DNA from: Baekduia alba
GTDB taxonomy: Bacteria; Actinomycetota; Thermoleophilia; Solirubrobacterales; Solirubrobacteraceae
Reading direction: 5' to 3'
DNA length: 64,000 nucleotides
Assembly: GCF_028416635.1 (NCBI RefSeq)
Contig: NZ_CP114013.1
Span: 806,001 to 870,000, forward strand
The translations under genes were made by a program, and so were the position numbers. The notes beneath the pieces are model-generated. The model was not told where the DNA came from. It saw only the letters and a list, made by a program, of their open reading frames with translations, and made no database searches. Below are positions 3,922-45,760 of this stretch, piece by piece; within the stretch, counting starts at the first letter, position 1; each line of letters begins with the position of its first letter.

Positions 3922-5193
3922 CTAGTTCTTGGGGGCTTCCCCGTGCTCGAACAGACCGTCCAAGTACGTCTCAGGGAGATATGCGCTCCTCGGACCGGGT
4001 GCGTTGCCCGCGGTGCTGAGGGTCCAGCCCTCCTCCGCCCAATCCTCGAGATTCTTGTTCGTGATGAGCGTGACCGGCGGGACGAAGGAGTTCACCTTGG
4101 GTCCTTGGCCCTGCAGCGTGCGCAACGCGATGCTCACCGCGGCCGCGGCGTTGCTCTGGGCGGACTCGCCGACGCCGGCGGTCTGGTAGCGCTCACGGTG
4201 CTCCTGCCAGTAGGAGACCATGGCCTTCTCGGCGCCGATCGCGCCGATGATCGGAACCGGCCGGCCGGTCGACGTGAACGCGTTGAGTACGCCCGTGCTC
4301 ATGCCGCCGGTCTGCTGCACCGCCGCGATCGGGGCCGGATGCGTCGCGAGGAACTTGAACGTCTCGGACTTGGCCGTTGCGTTGACGAACGCGCCGTCGA
4401 TGTCACCGACCAGCTTGATGCCGGGACAGTTCTTGAGGACCACCTTCGTCGCGGCGAACGTCGCTTGGTCGGCGGAGACGGTCCGATAGCCGTGCACATA
4501 GAGCAACTGACCCTTGCCACCGAGGAGCCGCGCGATGACCGACGTCGTCTGCGCACCCATCTGGAAGGCGTTCTCGGTGACGTTCAGCGACTCCGGAATG
4601 TCGATGTGGCCGATCAGCGACACGGTCGGGATGCCCGCGGCGGCGGCCTTGCGCACCGGCCCGTAGAAGGCCTCGGCCTGTAGCGGCGCCGTGATGATGA
4701 GGTCGGGCTTACGCGCGACCGCGGCGTTGTACTGCTGCAACTGCAGCGGGACGTTGAGGTCCTGCCCCGTCGTTGATACGACGACATCGCCGACGAGCGG
4801 ACTACGCGCCAGCTGCAACTTCAGGTCGTCGAGCAACTCGACTGCGAACTGGTTGACCGTTCCGGCGAAGACGATGGCGATCGTGTAGGGCGGCTGCTTC
4901 GCCTTGAAGCCGTGCCACGCGCTCTCGCGAACTTCGCCAAAGCCCCGGTACGCGTCTTGGTAGGCCTCAGGGAACGCTGCGACGACGCCGTCCGGATCGG
5001 AGACGGGGGGAGCGGCATAGCTTCCGCAGCCGCTGCTGGGTGCCTGCGCTGCGACGGCGGCCGCGACGTCTGATCCCGGCTGGCTGGATGGCTTGGACGA
5101 GTCGCCGCATGCGCTGAGGCCCCCCACAAGTGCCGCGACCGTGAGCAGCCAGCGAAGCGTTCGCGTCGTCCTCCCACTAGAACAGCGTTTCAT
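3922..5193 (-). CDS. Sugar ABC transporter substrate-binding lipoprotein
   Basis: 423 residues, exported and lipid-anchored: the N-terminus ends in the lipobox LSAC with the modified Cys at residue 29. The mature part has the two-lobed Peripla_BP_4 fold of simple-sugar or AI-2 binding proteins, opening with IAIVFAGTVNQFAVELLDDL and continuing with PDLIITAPLQ and GIPTVSLIGH. It delivers ligand to the permease pair. I chose ATG 5193 because a -35/-10 pair lies immediately upstream (5200-5229), which would make the transcript leaderless; the longer frame from TTG 5229 would overlap that promoter. First gene of the importer operon. Confidence 0.88.
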   Translation of the reverse strand: MKRCSSGRTTRTLRWLLTVAALVGGLSACGDSSKPSSQPGSDVAAAVAAQAPSSGCGSYAAPPVSDPDGVVAAFPEAYQDAYRGFGEVRESAWHGFKAKQPPYTIAIVFAGTVNQFAVELLDDLKLQLARSPLVGDVVVSTTGQDLNVPLQLQQYNAAVARKPDLIITAPLQAEAFYGPVRKAAAAGIPTVSLIGHIDIPESLNVTENAFQMGAQTTSVIARLLGGKGQLLYVHGYRTVSADQATFAATKVVLKNCPGIKLVGDIDGAFVNATAKSETFKFLATHPAPIAAVQQTGGMSTGVLNAFTSTGRPVPIIGAIGAEKAMVSYWQEHRERYQTAGVGESAQSNAAAAVSIALRTLQGQGPKVNSFVPPVTLITNKNLEDWAEEGWTLSTAGNAPGPRSAYLPETYLDGLFEHGEAPKN

Positions 5194-5199
5194 TGAGCG

Positions 5200-5229
5200 A
5201 ACGTAACACCACGCCGCGACCGTTGTCAA
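5200..5229 (-). promoter_or_regulatory. Probable leaderless promoter of the sugar importer operon
   Basis: On the minus strand TTGACA (5229-5224) is followed after 18 nt by TACGTT (5205-5200), matching the actinobacterial -10 pattern TANNNT. The ATG starts only 6 nt further on, so transcription would begin at or next to the start codon. No Shine-Dalgarno sequence is visible, consistent with a leaderless mRNA. Confidence 0.5.
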
Positions 5230-5283
5230 CTCGCGGCTTGACGGTGTGGTTTGCTCGGGCTACGTTCCTTAGGTTCCGAGTTG

Positions 5284-5855
5284 ATGACGTCCCACGGCGA
5301 ACCGCACCTGAAGGTCGAGCGACCGGCGCCATGCGTGCTGCGGTTGACGCTCAACCGACCGCGAGTCTTGAGCGCGATCAGCGAAGCGCTGCGCGACTCA
5401 GTGATCACCACGCTGCGCGAGGTCAACGACGATCGGAGCTGATGAGCGATCTCCGCATCGCCAGTGACCGCGCGTCGTTCCGGGTCGGGCAGGTCGCGCG
5501 CGGGCTCGTCCCGGACGTCGGGCTGACCTGGGTGTTGCCGCGTGTCGTTGGGACCGCCAGGGATGCTGCTCAACGAGGCGCTGACAGCCGACGTCGCCGA
5601 GCGCACCGGGCTCGTCAATCGCGTCGTCCCCCACGCGCAGGTCGGCGACGCCGCGCGCGCGATGGCGACAAAGCTCGCGGGGTCGTCGCGCACGTCGCTT
5701 GAGTGGATCAAGCGCACGACCTACATGAACCTCGACTTCGGGATGGAGGCCGCCTTCGCTTCGAGGCGATGGCGCAGGCGCTGCTCAGCGCGACCGATGA
5801 CTTCGAGGAAGGGCTGCGCGCGTTCAAGGACAAGCGTGCCGGCTCGTTCAGCTAG
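5284..5855 (+). pseudogene. Decayed enoyl-CoA hydratase (crotonase) gene
   Basis: Fragments of one crotonase lie in order but in different frames. 5284-5442 encodes the N-terminus (LTLNRPRVLSAISEALRD) and stops. A second frame at 5441-5575 carries DLRIASDRASFRVGQVARGL and GLTWVLPRVVG, the region after the active site. A third at about 5569-5750 gives LTADVAERTGLVNRVVPHAQ. A further one-base shift near 5753 recovers the C-terminus DDFEEGLRAFKDKRAGSFS to the stop at 5855. About 55 residues of the oxyanion-hole region between the first two pieces are missing. It cannot make an active enzyme. Its start lies close to the divergent sugar-importer promoter. Confidence 0.82.
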
Positions 5856-5867
5856 GGGTGCAGCGCG

Positions 5868-6330
5868 GTGAACGGCATCGACGACTTCGACGTCCTGCAG
5901 ATCCTGCGCATCAAGGGCGCACCGACGGCAGCGCCGTCGCTGCCGCGCTCGGAACCGCGACAGAGATCGTCGCGCAGCGCTTGGTGCTGCTCGAGGCGGA
6001 CAACCGGGTGTGGCGGGTCGCCACCCCACCCGGGGTCTGGGCGCTCACCCCCGAGGGAGTCGCTGCGCATGCCGAGCCGTCCGAACGTCGTCGTGCCTCG
6101 ACGCTGACCGATGTTCGCGCTGGCTATGAGGTGTTCTTGGCGCTCAACCAGGACGTCAAGCAGCTGACCAGCGAGTGGCAGGCTGCGGGCGCACGGCATC
6201 TCGATCTGATCGAGGAGCTCGCGGAGATCCACGAGCAGGCCGCCGAGGGCTTTGCGATCGCGGCGCGCGACGTTCCGCGCTTTGCGATCTACGCGCAGCG
6301 GCTCGACGCGGCGCGCGCGCATGCGCGCGC
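5868..6330 (+). pseudogene. Decayed winged-helix regulator of the type found beside PPDK
   Basis: Begins GTG 5868 with IDDFDVLQILRIKG, then shifts frame near 5915 to RTDGSAVAAALGTATEIVAQ, LTPEGVAAHA and FLALNQDVKQLTSEWQ. The order (helix-turn-helix, wing, long helical part with LTSEWQ) resembles actinobacterial regulators encoded next to pyruvate phosphate dikinase; that comparison is from memory and not searched. The reading then runs in frame straight into a PPDK-like fragment at about 6331, so a deletion has removed the C-terminus. 13 nt separate it from the crotonase remnant. Confidence 0.6.
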
Positions 6331-6720
6331 GGGAGTGCGCAGTGCCGGGATCAGCGTCCTGCCGGCGTTCATCGTGTCGACCGAGCTGTGCCGCCGCTAC
6401 TCCCGCGACCGAGCCCTCCCTCGCGAGGCGTGGGAGGAGATCGTGGACGGAGTCGGGGCGCTCGGCGAGGTCGTCGGACGGAGCTTCGGCGGCGCCGATG
6501 CGCCGCCGCCGCGAGGTCGAGCAGCTTGTGCAGCGCGCTCGCGCCGACGTGCCCATCGGTCACACCACCCGCGACGAGGACCTCCTGTGGATCTCTGGAC
6601 CCTGCGCGCGTCAGCGTGGAAGACACCTACATGGAAGCCGACCGCGCCGAGCTCACCGAGGCCTTCGAACAGGTCCTGAGCCTGCTGCTACCGACCGCTG
6701 GCAGGAACGCGGCGGGTTGA
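6331..6720 (+). pseudogene. Fragment of pyruvate phosphate dikinase N-terminus plus unidentified tail
   Basis: ISVLPAFIVSTELCRRYS...LPREAWEEIVDGV...GRSFGGAD matches the start of the PPDK nucleotide-binding domain (pattern PPGF.ISTE.C..Y...LP...W.E), in the same frame as the regulator remnant before it. After about 6500 the frame changes twice (EVEQLVQRARADVPIGHTTR, then VSVEDTYMEADRAELTEAFE) and stops at 6720; I do not recognise that tail. None of it could encode a working dikinase. Confidence 0.55.
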
Positions 6721-28201: not shown

Positions 28202-28208
28202 GCCACAC

Positions 28209-28242
28209 CCGTCGGCACAACTCGGAGTCCGTTCAGCCTAGG
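28209..28242 (-). repeat. Right terminal inverted repeat of the IS
   Basis: Inverted copy of the left end. The TIR body starts directly after the transposase stop region and ends at CCTAGG (28237-28242), which includes the second CTAG. Confidence 0.85.
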
Positions 28243-28247
28243 CCGGC

Positions 28248-28406
28248 TCAGCGGGAGGCCCGCGCCTGCACGCGACCGCCGGCAGCAATCCCCGAGCTGC
28301 GCGGCGGCACGGACAGCAGGCTGGCGCGGACGAGCTGCACCTGACGAGCGTGGAGGTCCAGCTCCCGAGCCAAGATGGCCTGGATGTGATGCGCGTGCGA
28401 CTGCAT
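28248..28406 (-). CDS. Possible short gene or gene remnant beside the IS
   Basis: 52-residue frame from ATG 28406 reading MQSHAHHIQAILARELDLHA and RQVQLVRASLLSVPPRSS. The first half faintly resembles the extreme N-terminus of Tex-type RNA-binding proteins, which would make this a truncated relic; that is a weak impression. It ends 6 bp before the IS right end. Confidence 0.25.
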   Translation of the reverse strand: MQSHAHHIQAILARELDLHARQVQLVRASLLSVPPRSSGIAAGGRVQARASR

Positions 28407-28512
28407 GGGCGCATCCTCCACTTCGCCTAGGCGCCGGGCAGCCGAGGTGGCTCCCGAACGCAGGTACGGTCCGCCGCACCTCGGCGTTTCGCAAATGTGA
28501 ACGCGCCAGGCT

Positions 28513-34457: not shown

Positions 34458-35972
34458 ATGGCGCGGACCCGGAGAGAGCTGTTGCAGGACGGCGCGCGCC
34501 TGGGCGCGGCCGCCGTCGTGGGCGGTGCCTACCTGGGAACGGCGCCCGCGGGCGCCGCGACCGCCGCGCCCTATGCCACCGGGTTCCGGTCCTTGACGTC
34601 CGAGGTGCGGGTACCCGCCCTCCACGTCGACGGCGCGCTGCCCCGCTGGCTCAACGGCGTCCTGGTCCGCAACGGCCCGGCGCTGTTCGAGATCGGCGAG
34701 CAGCAGCTCAACCACTGGTTCGACGGGCTGGCGATGCTGCACGGCTTCGCGTTCGGCGACGGGCGCGTCTCCTACGCCAACCGCTTCCTGCGCTCCAGCC
34801 AGCACGACGCCTGGAAGCGCACGGGCAAGATGAAGTACTCGGAGTTCGGGACGGACCCGTGCCGCGCGATCTTCAGCGGCGTCACGACGCTGCCGGTGCT
34901 GGGGACGGTCCCGAACGCCAACGTCTCGATCGAGCGCCTCGGCACGCGTTTCCGGGCGCTGACCGAGCTGCCGGTGCCGGTGCGCTTCGACCCGCGGTCG
35001 CTCAAGACCCTGGGCGCCGACGCCGAGGCCGCGCCCAACGGCCGGCTCGGGACCGCGCATCCGCACCACGACCCCCGGACCGGCCAGCGCTTCTCCTACG
35101 AGCTGGAGCTCGTGCCCCCGTCGGGGCTGCGCGTCCTGGTGCAAGGGCGGGACGGCACGCGCCGCGAGCTGGCGTTCGTCCCGCAGGACCGCCCGGGCTA
35201 CCTGCACTCGTTCGCGCTCACGCCGCGCTACGTCGCGGTCTTCACGCAGCCCTTCGGCTTCGACCTCACGAAGTTCCTGTCGCCGCAGCGCGGGCCGATC
35301 GTGACGAACTTCGCGTGGGACGCGCGGCAGCCGTCGCGCGTCGTGCTGGTCGACCGCGCGCGCGGCGGGGTGGCGGCGACGATCGAGGTCGACCCATTCT
35401 TCGTGTTCCACAACATCAACGCGTTCGAGGACGCGCGCGGCCGCGTCGTGGTCGACGTCTGCGCGCACCACGACGACGGGATCGTCCAGGCGTTGTACCT
35501 CAAGAACCTGCGGCGGGCGGGCGTGCGGGTCCCGCAGGCGACGCCGCGGCGGCTGACCCTGGACCCGGCGTCGGGCAAGGCCGAGGTGCGCGACCTCGCC
35601 GAGGGCAACTTCGAGCTGCCGCGCACCGACTACGACCGCATGAACGCACGCGAGTACCGCTATGCCTACGGCGTGGGCGTGAAGGACCCGGCGCGCAGCG
35701 GCTTCATCGACCGCATCAGCAAGTTGGACATCAAGGCCGAGCGGCTGACGCACTGGGACGAGCGGGGCGCGTATCCGGGCGAGCCGGTGTTCGTCCGGCG
35801 ACCGGGCGGCGGACGCGGCGAGGACGACGGCGTCCTGCTCTCGGTCGTCCTCGACGCGCCGGCGCGCACGTCCTACCTGCTGGTGCTCGACGCGCGCGAC
35901 CTGCGCGAGATCGCCCGCGCGCGCGTGCCGCACCACATCCCGTTCGGGTTCCACGGGTTGTACGCGTCGTAG
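34458..35972 (+). CDS. Tat-exported carotenoid cleavage oxygenase (RPE65 family)
   Basis: 504 residues. The N-terminus RTRRELLQDGARLGAAAVVG is a twin-arginine signal, so the folded iron enzyme would act outside the membrane. The family's four iron-binding His appear in TAHPHHDP (~201-204), YLHSFALTP (~253), FVFHNINAFED (~317) and GFHGLY (499). RNGPALFEIGEQQLNHWFDG and LHGFAFGDGRVSYANRF are family blocks. It cleaves a carotenoid or related alkene (stilbene/lignostilbene activity also possible). Divergent from the ECF sigma factor. Confidence 0.88.
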   Translation: MARTRRELLQDGARLGAAAVVGGAYLGTAPAGAATAAPYATGFRSLTSEVRVPALHVDGALPRWLNGVLVRNGPALFEIGEQQLNHWFDGLAMLHGFAFGDGRVSYANRFLRSSQHDAWKRTGKMKYSEFGTDPCRAIFSGVTTLPVLGTVPNANVSIERLGTRFRALTELPVPVRFDPRSLKTLGADAEAAPNGRLGTAHPHHDPRTGQRFSYELELVPPSGLRVLVQGRDGTRRELAFVPQDRPGYLHSFALTPRYVAVFTQPFGFDLTKFLSPQRGPIVTNFAWDARQPSRVVLVDRARGGVAATIEVDPFFVFHNINAFEDARGRVVVDVCAHHDDGIVQALYLKNLRRAGVRVPQATPRRLTLDPASGKAEVRDLAEGNFELPRTDYDRMNAREYRYAYGVGVKDPARSGFIDRISKLDIKAERLTHWDERGAYPGEPVFVRRPGGGRGEDDGVLLSVVLDAPARTSYLLVLDARDLREIARARVPHHIPFGFHGLYAS

Positions 35973-35982
35973 ACTTCGGGAC

Positions 35983-36504
35983 CTGCCGCCCGCGAGCAAG
36001 TCCATCACCATCCGCCGCGCCGATCCCGGCGACGCCGCACGCATCGCGACGATCTACAACGAGGGGATCGCCGAGCGCCAGGCCACGTTCGAGACGCGGC
36101 CGCGTGGCACCGCGGAGGTCGCGGGGTGGACGGTCCGCGCGCTCCCGGTGCTCGTCGCCGAGCACGAGGGCCGCGTGGTCGGCTTCGGCCGGATCGGCCC
36201 CTACTCCGAGCGCGAGGTCTACTCCGGCATCGGCGAGCACGCCGTCTACGTCGGGTCCGACGCCCGCCGCCTCGGGGTCGGCCACGCGTTGTTGGAGGCC
36301 TTGGCCGTCGCCGCGGAGGAGATCGGGCTGTACAAGCTGACCTCCCGGATCTTCTCGACCAACACCGCCTCGATCGAGCTGCACCGCACCAGCGGCTTCA
36401 CGATCGTGGGCATCCAACGACATCACGGGCAGCTGGACGGGGCGTGGCGCGACTGCGTGCTGGTGGAGCGGCTGGTGGGGGAAGCGGCGCGGGACGTGGG
36501 GTGA
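35983..36504 (+). CDS. GNAT acetyltransferase, phosphinothricin-acetyltransferase-like
   Basis: About 170 residues. ITIRRADPGDAARIATIYNE, GIAERQATFETRPR, VYVGSDARRLGVGHALLEAL (acetyl-CoA loop R-x2-G-x-G/A) and IFSTNTASIELHRTSGFTIV are the blocks of the Pat/ArsN subgroup, which acetylates small amino-acid-like toxins. No ATG, GTG or TTG lies in frame before the homology: only CTG 35983 or AAG 35998, where a start would normally be. It follows the oxygenase by 10 bp, so it may use a rare start or be silenced. Confidence 0.7.
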   Translation: MPPASKSITIRRADPGDAARIATIYNEGIAERQATFETRPRGTAEVAGWTVRALPVLVAEHEGRVVGFGRIGPYSEREVYSGIGEHAVYVGSDARRLGVGHALLEALAVAAEEIGLYKLTSRIFSTNTASIELHRTSGFTIVGIQRHHGQLDGAWRDCVLVERLVGEAARDVG

Positions 36505-36913
36505 GGGCTGGGCGCGGGCGCGGGCGCGGGCGCGGGCGTTGGTTGGTCACCAGTACGGCGCGCGTGTGGTGCTGCGGCGCGTGGTTCGTTCCTCATCAAG
36601 GGCGTGAAGGCGTGTTGGCGGCGCGACCGGGATCGGTGTGGCTCGTCGGTGGTCGTGCTCCGGGGCGGGCGGTTCGGGGCCGAATGGTGCTCGATCGCGT
36701 CAAGTCCGCGACTTACGCGGACTTCACGCGATCCATAGCGCCTGACCCGACGATTCGGCCCCGAACTCGCCCGCCGCGCTGCCACGAGGTCGAGCCACAC
36801 CGACCGCGTGGAGCGCCGCCACCACACTCGCACGCCCTTGATGACGGACGCACCACTCCCCGCAGCACGACCCGCGCGCCGCACTGAACACCAACCGGCG
36901 CCGACGCCCACCC
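36505..36913. repeat. Gene-free region holding a ~355-bp imperfect inverted repeat
   Basis: Left arm about 36541-36710, right arm about 36716-36896. Paired blocks include GATCGCGTCAAGTCCGCG (36693-36710) with 36716-36733 (17 of 18, 5-nt loop), GTTCGGGGCCGAAT (36672-36685) with 36753-36766, CGGTGTGGCTCG (36634-36645) with 36791-36802, ATCAAGGGCG (36595-36604) with 36833-36842, and GGTTGGT (36541-36547) with 36890-36896. A 12-nt indel separates the central and outer registers. A CGGGCG microsatellite (36511-36540) abuts the left arm. No coding role seen; it is an inverted duplication able to form a very long hairpin. Confidence 0.85.
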
Positions 36914-38128
36914 TCACCCCGCCAGCGCCAGCGTCACCCGATCCGCCAGCAGCCGCCCCCGCAGCGTCAGCACCGCCCGCCCATCCCGCGTCAGCGGGTC
37001 GTCCTGCAGCAGCCCGTCCGCGGCGAGCTGCGCCGCGACGCCGCGCGCGTGGCCGTTGAGGCCCTCGAGCGCCAGGCCCTCCTTCAGCCGCACGCCCAGC
37101 ATCACGTGCTCCAGCCGCGTCGCGTCCGCGTCGGGCTCCTCTCGGCCCGCCGCCGGCGACGAGCCCTCGGCCAGCAGCGCCATCCAGCGCGATGGGTGCA
37201 GGACGTTCCACCAGCGCACGCCGCCGATGTGGGAGTGCGCGCCGGGGCCGATGCCCCACCAGTCGCCGCCCGCCCAGTAGCCGAGGTTGTGGCGGCAGCG
37301 GTCGGCGTCGGTGCGGGCCCAGTTGGCGACCTCGTACCAGCGCAGGCCGGCGGCGCCGAGGACGGTCTCGGTCGTCTCGTAGCGGTCGGCGAGCACGTCG
37401 TCGTCCGGGGCCGGAAGCTCGCCGCGGCGGACCCGCGCCGCCAGCTTCGTGCCGGGCTCGACGATCAGGGAGTAGGCCGAGACGTGGTCGGGCTCGGCCT
37501 CCAGCGCCGTCTCCAGCGACACGCGCCAGTCCTCCGCGCGCTCGCCCGGGGTGCCGTAGATGAGGTCGAGCGAGACGTGCTCGAAGCCGGCGGCGCGCGC
37601 CTCGCGCGCGGCGGCCACGGCGCGGCCCGGCGTGTGATGGCGGTCGAGCGTCTCGAGGACGTGCGGCGCCGCGCTCTGCATGCCAAGCGAGATGCGGGTG
37701 AAGCCGGCCTCGCGCAGCGCGGCGAGCGCGACGGGGTCGACCGACTCCGGGTTGGCCTCGGTCGTGACCTCGGCGCCGGGCGCGATGCCGACGTGCTCGC
37801 GGATCGCGTCCAGGATGCGGGCCAGCTCGTCGGGCGCCAGGAGCGTCGGCGTCCCGCCGCCGACGAAGACGGTCTGGGCGGGCGGCGTGGCGTCGCCGAG
37901 GACGCCACGCGCGAGCGCCAGCTCGGCCCGGACCGCGGCGCCGAACCCGTCCTGCGACGCCTCGGTCCCGATGTAGGTGTTGTAGTCGCAGTAGCCGCAG
38001 CGCGCAGCGCAGTACGGCACGTGGACGTAGACGCCGAACGGCCGATCGGCGGCGCCGAGGCCGTGCAGGGCCGTCGGCGGCAGCGCGCCGTCGGCGGGGG
38101 GACGTTCGCCGTCGGGCAGCCGCGCCAT
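36914..38128 (-). CDS. hemW: Radical SAM haem chaperone / coproporphyrinogen oxidase-like protein
   Basis: 404 residues. VHVPYCAARCGYCDYNTYIG gives the C-x3-C-x2-C cluster (C40, C44, C47). FVGGGTPTLL, EVTTEANPESVD and FTRISLGMQS follow as in HemN/HemW. The C-terminal HemN_C domain starts around RWWNVLHPSRWMALL. The N-terminus lacks the extra features of true HemN, so haem transfer is likelier than coproporphyrinogen decarboxylation. ATG 38128 chosen. Its 3' end lies against the large inverted repeat. Confidence 0.88.
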   Translation of the reverse strand: MARLPDGERPPADGALPPTALHGLGAADRPFGVYVHVPYCAARCGYCDYNTYIGTEASQDGFGAAVRAELALARGVLGDATPPAQTVFVGGGTPTLLAPDELARILDAIREHVGIAPGAEVTTEANPESVDPVALAALREAGFTRISLGMQSAAPHVLETLDRHHTPGRAVAAAREARAAGFEHVSLDLIYGTPGERAEDWRVSLETALEAEPDHVSAYSLIVEPGTKLAARVRRGELPAPDDDVLADRYETTETVLGAAGLRWYEVANWARTDADRCRHNLGYWAGGDWWGIGPGAHSHIGGVRWWNVLHPSRWMALLAEGSSPAAGREEPDADATRLEHVMLGVRLKEGLALEGLNGHARGVAAQLAADGLLQDDPLTRDGRAVLTLRGRLLADRVTLALAG

Positions 38129-45523: not shown

Positions 45524-45607
45524 GGGGACCCGTCCGGAGGATCGCCGCGCGATACGGGGGCGGATCCGCCGCGCGGATCCACTACTCTCTCACCTTCCGC
45601 CGTACCC

Positions 45608-45695
45608 GGAGGGGTGCCGGAGTGGTTGAACGGGGCGGTCTCGAAAACCGTTGTACGGCTTCGTCGTACCGAGGGTTCGAATCCCTCCCCCTCCG
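45608..45695 (+). tRNA. tRNA-Ser, anticodon CGA
   Basis: 88 nt. Acceptor stem GGAGGGG (45608-45614) pairs with CCCCTCC (45688-45694), discriminator G45695; the CCA end is not encoded. Anticodon loop CTCGAAA reads CGA, decoding UCG serine. A long variable arm (about TTGTACGGCTTCGTCGTACC) is typical of class II serine tRNAs, and the T arm is GAGGG-TTCGAAT-CCCTC. Confidence 0.96.
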
Positions 45696-45706
45696 CTGAA
45701 CACGAC

Positions 45707-45732
45707 GAAGGGCGCCCGCCGGGGCGCCCTTC
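45707..45732 (+). terminator. Bidirectional hairpin between tRNA-Ser and the cupredoxin-protein gene
   Basis: Perfect 11-bp arms GAAGGGCGCCC (45707-45717) and GGGCGCCCTTC (45722-45732) with a 4-nt loop. It starts 12 nt after the tRNA and lies 29 nt beyond the convergent gene's stop, so it can end both transcripts. Confidence 0.75.
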
Positions 45733-45760
45733 GCCGTTCGAGGCTGGTGTGCAGCGTCGA

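What the first reader, a model, noticed from the sequence alone, without database searches (positions are those of the whole stretch)
36541..36896. ~355-bp imperfect inverted repeat between an acetyltransferase and hemW
Two ~170-180-nt arms match over most of their length, with a nearly perfect 18-bp centre and a 12-nt indel. Such a long inverted duplication can form a cruciform or a double-stranded RNA-like transcript. It could be a non-autonomous mobile repeat or an inverted pair of intergenic repeat elements. It fits no standard feature type.
Basis: seen in the sequence. Interest (0 to 1): 0.65.

Follow-up and report, generated by a model that had tools for sequence, protein, structure and literature searches.

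The report
Mobile giant hairpins at gene ends
This 370-base near-palindrome is one of about twenty scattered copies of an apparently mobile hairpin element, found so far only in a few related soil bacteria, that sits right behind the ends of genes, and whose small inner hairpin differs from copy to copy.

Summary
Window 36534-36907 is a ~370-nt imperfect palindrome filling the gap between two convergent genes. It is a dispersed repeat: 19 places in this 5.86-Mb genome carry at least one long arm. Related families occur in three other genomes of the genus; the other 142 family genomes searched gave three weak single hits. Anatomy: two ~155-nt arms, each of a recognisable type, around one or more 40-57-nt mini-palindromes that differ between copies and species and also occur alone. 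17 of 19 copies lie between convergent genes (background 66 of 422 pairs). Between species the arms change in step (18 of 84 paired columns changed in both arms to the same base), so pairing is preserved. No target duplication was seen and no partner transposase identified; RAYT-like genes exist, but their flanks mostly carry other palindromes. Best reading: a non-autonomous mobile palindrome, REP/MITE-like but larger and nested, tolerated or useful at gene 3' ends. The enzyme and any terminator role are inferred. A new variant of a known kind.

The parts
36148..36504 (+). GNAT acetyltransferase gene, 3' end faces the element (my caller's start; the true start is probably upstream)
   Evidence: Acetyltransf_1 PF00583 E 9e-14; gene call; homologous gene at the same place in L059-L062
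36517..36533 (.). short GC-rich spacer with GCGGGC tandem units between the stop codon and the left arm
   Evidence: sequence
36534..36688 (+). left arm, ~155 nt
   Evidence: arm model R1 hit at 842534-842688 = window 36534-36688
36689..36735 (.). core mini-palindrome, type A (20-bp stem with 2 mismatches, 5-nt loop)
   Evidence: the same core, degraded or solo, at 790743-790792
36747..36907 (-). right arm, ~155 nt; 36736-36746 before it is the unpaired asymmetric stretch
   Evidence: arm model R1 hit at 842747-842896 = window 36747-36896
   Evidence: Radical_SAM PF04055 E 4e-23; the name hemW itself was not tested

Best explanation
It is one copy of a non-autonomous mobile palindrome family (REP/MITE-like, but typically ~370-490 nt and nested) in a clade of Conexibacter-like bacteria. 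The unit of left arm, core mini-palindrome(s) and right arm has spread to new places; the small core also spreads alone and is exchanged between units. The route I think most likely is movement or copying as a folded single DNA strand by an enzyme not identified here. Copies persist almost only just behind stop codons, most often between convergent genes, where a strong two-way hairpin does no harm and may help to stop transcription from both sides. Shown: dispersal, unit structure, filled and empty sites, location bias, preserved pairing between species. Inferred: the enzyme, the single-strand route, core exchange as a process, any terminator effect.
For: 53 matches in 22 distinct places of the own genome, 19 of them with a long arm. 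Left arms resemble left arms and right arms resemble right arms. Similarity between copies fades near the element ends, so not segmental duplication. The GNAT/hemW site is filled in G000 and G071 and empty in G030, G080 and G045; the L022 site lacks the palindrome in G045 with both convergent genes kept. Four G030 copies at different sites are 91-95% alike. Type B core: 8 places inside long copies and 8 others, one of these in a decayed copy. 17 of 19 copies convergent against 66 of 422 pairs (Fisher p 1.4e-11). Arms change in step between species: 18 of 84, 15 of 71 and 17 of 64 columns, about 2-3 expected by a rough estimate.
Against: No target duplication and no autonomous relative were seen. 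At the L006 site G000 and G030 are both filled, which could also be vertical inheritance plus homogenisation within each genome. In G030 only 5 of 12 copies are convergent. RAYT-like genes: 22 of 146 family genomes, one each in G000 and G030 but none in G080, which has the arms (68% complete). No match in plasmids or phages.
Confidence: 0.68

Rival explanations
1. Host-kept bidirectional transcription terminators or insulators: the hairpin stays between convergent genes because it stops RNA polymerase from either side. It can be true together with a mobile origin.
For: Position just behind stop codons and between convergent genes; pairing preserved between species.
Against: Two thirds of convergent gaps in the 464-kb sample are under 25 nt and have no room for such an element; orthologous sites do without it; tandem copies in G030; no T-run seen behind the hairpin (sequence).
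Confidence: 0.3
2. MITE: a miniature derivative of a DNA transposon whose ~155-nt terminal inverted repeats are nearly all that is left.
For: Long inverted arms, several copies, conserved boxes inside the arms.
Against: No target duplication seen; no copy with a transposase between the arms among those viewed; the family is confined to four genomes of the genus as far as searched.
Confidence: 0.2
3. REP moved by a RAYT (Y1 transposase): the cores are REPs and the long arms a large BIME-like composite.
For: One RAYT-like gene in each of G000 and G030, with HTHLL and YIASNPV motifs; a degenerate palindrome like the G030 core lies 3' of the G000 gene (by eye).
Against: No core of the family was found by the hairpin scan beside the Y1 genes of 33 loci; where palindromes occur they are mostly of the GGGGTCAGACCCC / GGGGACTGTCCCC kind. 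None found in G080.
Confidence: 0.15
4. A structured non-coding RNA gene.
For: Very stable fold; preserved pairing.
Against: No Rfam match at E up to 1 in 36000-37400. G.U 79 against A.C 104 among arm transitions, p 0.076: no strand favoured, though a product of both strands would show none either. RNAalifold covariation term slightly unfavourable, +4.4.
Confidence: 0.07

Closest known systems
REP / BIME palindromes (GTAG and CGTC super-families, PMC3733652)
   Same: Dispersed, non-coding, palindromic, at gene 3' ends; the paper reports REPs between convergent genes mostly <20 bp from both 3' ends, dimers that may fold into one large structure, and CGTC REPs without a dedicated transposase (passages).
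   Different: The paper gives REPs as 20-40 bp; here stems of the core alone are 18-26 bp, the full unit is ~370-490 nt, and copies are ~20, not hundreds. No GTAG or CGTC end tag was recognised by eye.
TIRYT-associated palindromes (GGGGWSAS motif, PMC3733652)
   Same: Palindromes beside Y1 transposase genes occur in this family too.
   Different: The cores of this element do not share that motif.
MITEs
   Same: Non-coding inverted repeats in several copies between genes.
   Different: No target duplication seen, no parent transposon known, exchangeable core.
ERIC/IRU elements (recalled)
   Same: Imperfect palindromes in intergenic DNA with size variants.
   Different: About 127 bp and enterobacterial, from memory; no sequence comparison was made.

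Membership tests
REP (GTAG/CGTC) | short palindrome of 20-40 bp | tested here: not met
   cores about 40-57 nt, whole unit ~370-490 nt
REP (GTAG/CGTC) | GTAG or CGTC tetranucleotide at one end | tested here: inconclusive
   not recognised by eye; no formal scan
REP (GTAG/CGTC) | intergenic, near 3' ends of genes | tested here: met
REP with RAYT | RAYT gene flanked by the same palindrome | tested here: inconclusive
   no family core found in the hairpin scan of 33 Y1 loci; one degenerate look-alike 3' of the G000 gene by eye
MITE | terminal inverted repeats | tested here: met
   two ~155-nt arms
MITE | target site duplication | tested here: inconclusive
   none seen by eye; GC-rich flanks and diverged empty sites blur the ends
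MITE | related autonomous transposon with the same ends | tested here: inconclusive
Rfam RNA families | covariance-model match | tested here: not met
   0 matches at E up to 1
Intrinsic terminator | hairpin that ends transcription | not testable with these tools
   needs RNA 3'-end data

The most novel reading that the evidence does not exclude
A two-tier mobile palindrome: long arms act as a platform at gene ends and keep their pairing over species divergence, while lineage-specific 40-57-nt hairpin cores (usually a 5-nt loop, often TATG/CATA) are swapped in and out and can be stacked. This would be a new class of nested single-strand-hairpin transposon with its own unidentified enzyme, doubling as a two-way transcription stop.
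Probability: 0.25. Interest if true: 0.7.

Novelty: new variant of a known kind. Interest (0 to 1): 0.5.

Why it matters
Long palindromes are described as break-prone in bacteria (abstract starts of PMC4245961 and PMC3315005, listing only), yet here about twenty long quasi-palindromes sit in one chromosome and keep their pairing between species. They would let one ask how a bacterium tolerates such DNA, how a small hairpin core is exchanged inside a larger one, and whether mobile hairpins supply terminators between convergent genes.

Tried and rejected
RNA-strand selection: G.U 79 against A.C 104, no excess for the left-arm-first strand; between convergent genes both strands may be transcribed, so this test is weak. 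Known RNA family: none. RAYT as the mover: kept only as a rival. Chance hairpin: excluded. Other convergent gaps over 60 nt in the window, 28202-28512 and 45524-45760, fold ordinarily. Sample of 20 stretches of 20 kb plus the window: at the hairpin threshold used, no further core of the family by eye. Plasmids and phages: no match. The gene beside copy L005 is 90% identical in G030 but its other neighbour is not found there, so that is no clean empty site.

Weak hits against genus limitation: the first DNA search matched 18 of 101 family genomes at E <= 1e-3, 13 of them outside the genus with one match each of 26-61 nt and E 4e-6 to 8e-4; the arm model gave three single hits outside the genus, E 3e-4 to 6e-4 (stricter filters). 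I take them as chance but did not inspect each.

Rows dropped before counts: L029 (decayed copy), L030 and L031 (fragments) from the G000 context count; L149, L255, L256 (a neighbour gene missing at the contig end) from the G071/G080 count; the hemW-site copy L060 was not among the 31 rows. In one search, 58-91 of 155 columns were skipped for gaps or no majority.

Papers: PMC3733652 seen as passages; the rest as search listings only. 'Conexibacter' occurred in none of the 12 papers listed of 1,427; one search listed 8 of 62, none with 'Solirubrobacter'. That this family is undescribed rests on those partial listings.

Full report
1. What is there. The window is G000:C1:806001-870000 of a 5.86-Mb single-contig genome. 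The best named relative of its hemW protein in genome contigs is Conexibacter sp. RYN_258, 76% identity (the window's own record may be left out there). Fold energy -300.5 kcal/mol, z -14.3, 0 of 100 shuffles.

2. It is a dispersed repeat. The own genome gave 53 matches, which I merge into 22 places. Nineteen hold at least one long arm; three are fragments (L029-L031), L029 looking like a decayed copy. By the count of identical arm positions 11 of 19 have both arms nearly complete (119 or more); eight have fewer (15-71), partly because an arm is cut or internally deleted (L010, L021, L023, L025, L026, L028, L032 by eye). Left arms of different copies resemble each other, and so do right arms, more than left resembles right: the unit spread as a whole.

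3. The core differs. At the centre sit mini-palindromes of about 40-57 nt. Type A is in L001-L006, L010 and L022; type B in L007, L016, L021, L025-L028 and L032; L008, L022 and L024 have others (for B). Type B occurs in eight more places, one of them L029; 5 of those 8 are convergent, 2 '++', 1 '--'. G030 has its own two cores: two lie side by side in each of the five copies viewed, and a dozen more in ten other loci, of which L131 and L132 also hold arm sequence. In 394 kb of fetched loci, chosen for these elements, 38 strong hairpins passed my threshold; 37 are intergenic; 31 of the 37 have a 5-nt loop, and 22 of 37 have TATG, CATA or ATAC at the tip, a pattern picked after looking. One G080 copy carries about seven tandem inner hairpins by eye (L054).

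4. Where it sits. By a codon-model gene caller of my own, 17 of 19 G000 copies lie between convergent genes; exceptions are L026 (tandem) and L032 (divergent). Background in 464 kb: 66 of 422 neighbour pairs convergent, 292 tandem, 64 divergent; two thirds of convergent gaps are under 25 nt. G030: 5 of 12 convergent, 7 tandem. G071 and G080: 10 convergent, 6 tandem, 3 unknown of 19. Fisher p 1.4e-11 for G000 and 1.1e-13 for 32 of 47 overall. The caller was trained on the window, so calls in other genomes are rougher, and copies are not fully independent. REPs of other bacteria are reported with the same habit (PMC3733652, passages).

5. Mobility. At the GNAT/hemW site G000 is filled; G071 holds another member of the same architecture (gap 329 nt); G030 and G080 have overlapping or nearly touching stop codons; G045 has a gap of some 20 nt (read by eye). 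The other four loci of that call lack the GNAT neighbour and say nothing. At the L022 site G045 keeps both convergent genes without a palindrome. At the L006 site G000 and G030 are both filled, yet the G030 element is 91-95% like three other G030 copies and matches L006 only over 112 nt. No target duplication was visible. The arm model finds the family in 4 of the 7 genus genomes among 146 family genomes; the rest gave three weak single hits.

6. Pairing is preserved. Consensus arms of G000 and G030: of 84 columns paired in G000, 19 changed in one arm, 18 in the other, and 18 in both to the same base, against about 2 by a rough independence estimate; 15 of 71 for G000/G071 and 17 of 64 for G030/G071. 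The consensus comes from few rows and both arms were aligned together, which leans towards agreement. Within G000, 15 pairs show double changes against 6.7 in shuffles, but nine of these lie in the core region where types differ, and the RNAalifold covariation term is +4.4, slightly unfavourable. Selection for pairing and self-correction of a palindrome cannot be told apart here.

7. Mechanism. I favour a hairpin-based non-autonomous mobile element. The enzyme is unknown. Y1 transposase genes occur in 22 of 146 family genomes and once each in G000 and G030. Around them the hairpin scan of 33 loci showed mostly GGGGTCAGACCCC- or GGGGACTGTCCCC-like palindromes or none, not the cores of this family; one degenerate look-alike of the G030 core lies 3' of the G000 gene (by eye). 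A terminator role fits the location but was not tested. A late hint: symmetry can reach over both stop codons (10 nt in this copy); partners shuffled between 21 copies reached the observed mean in 8 of 301 permutations.

8. Verdict. Real, dispersed, mobile-looking and, as far as searched, limited to part of one genus. In kind it is a REP/MITE-like repeat; in size, nesting and core exchange it differs from those described in the passages I read.

Noticed in passing
L054/L260 (G080:C579, about 233-1223): A copy whose centre holds about seven tandem hairpin units of ~70 nt (GGTGGGCCCGA...GGGCCCACC).
   Followed up: no
L159, L164, L165, L276, L286 and others: Y1 (PF01797) transposase genes flanked by GGGGTCAGACCCC-like palindromes, matching the GGGGWSAS motif that PMC3733652 gives for TIRYTs.
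   Followed up: partly
36505-36533 and L002, L007, L028 left flanks: Short tandem repeats between stop codon and left arm in several copies.
   Followed up: no
window 36495-36924 and other copies: Palindrome symmetry extending over both flanking stop codons (8 of 301 permutations as high).
   Followed up: partly
window 45524-45760: Convergent gap that seems to hold a tRNA-Ser-like sequence (by eye, ARAGORN not run) and a 16-bp hairpin at 45702-45737.
   Followed up: no
window 34458-35972: Carotenoid-oxygenase-type protein (RPE65, PF03055, E 1.4e-114).
   Followed up: no
window 5128-6716: 1589 nt without a called gene between divergent genes; perhaps a missed gene.
   Followed up: no
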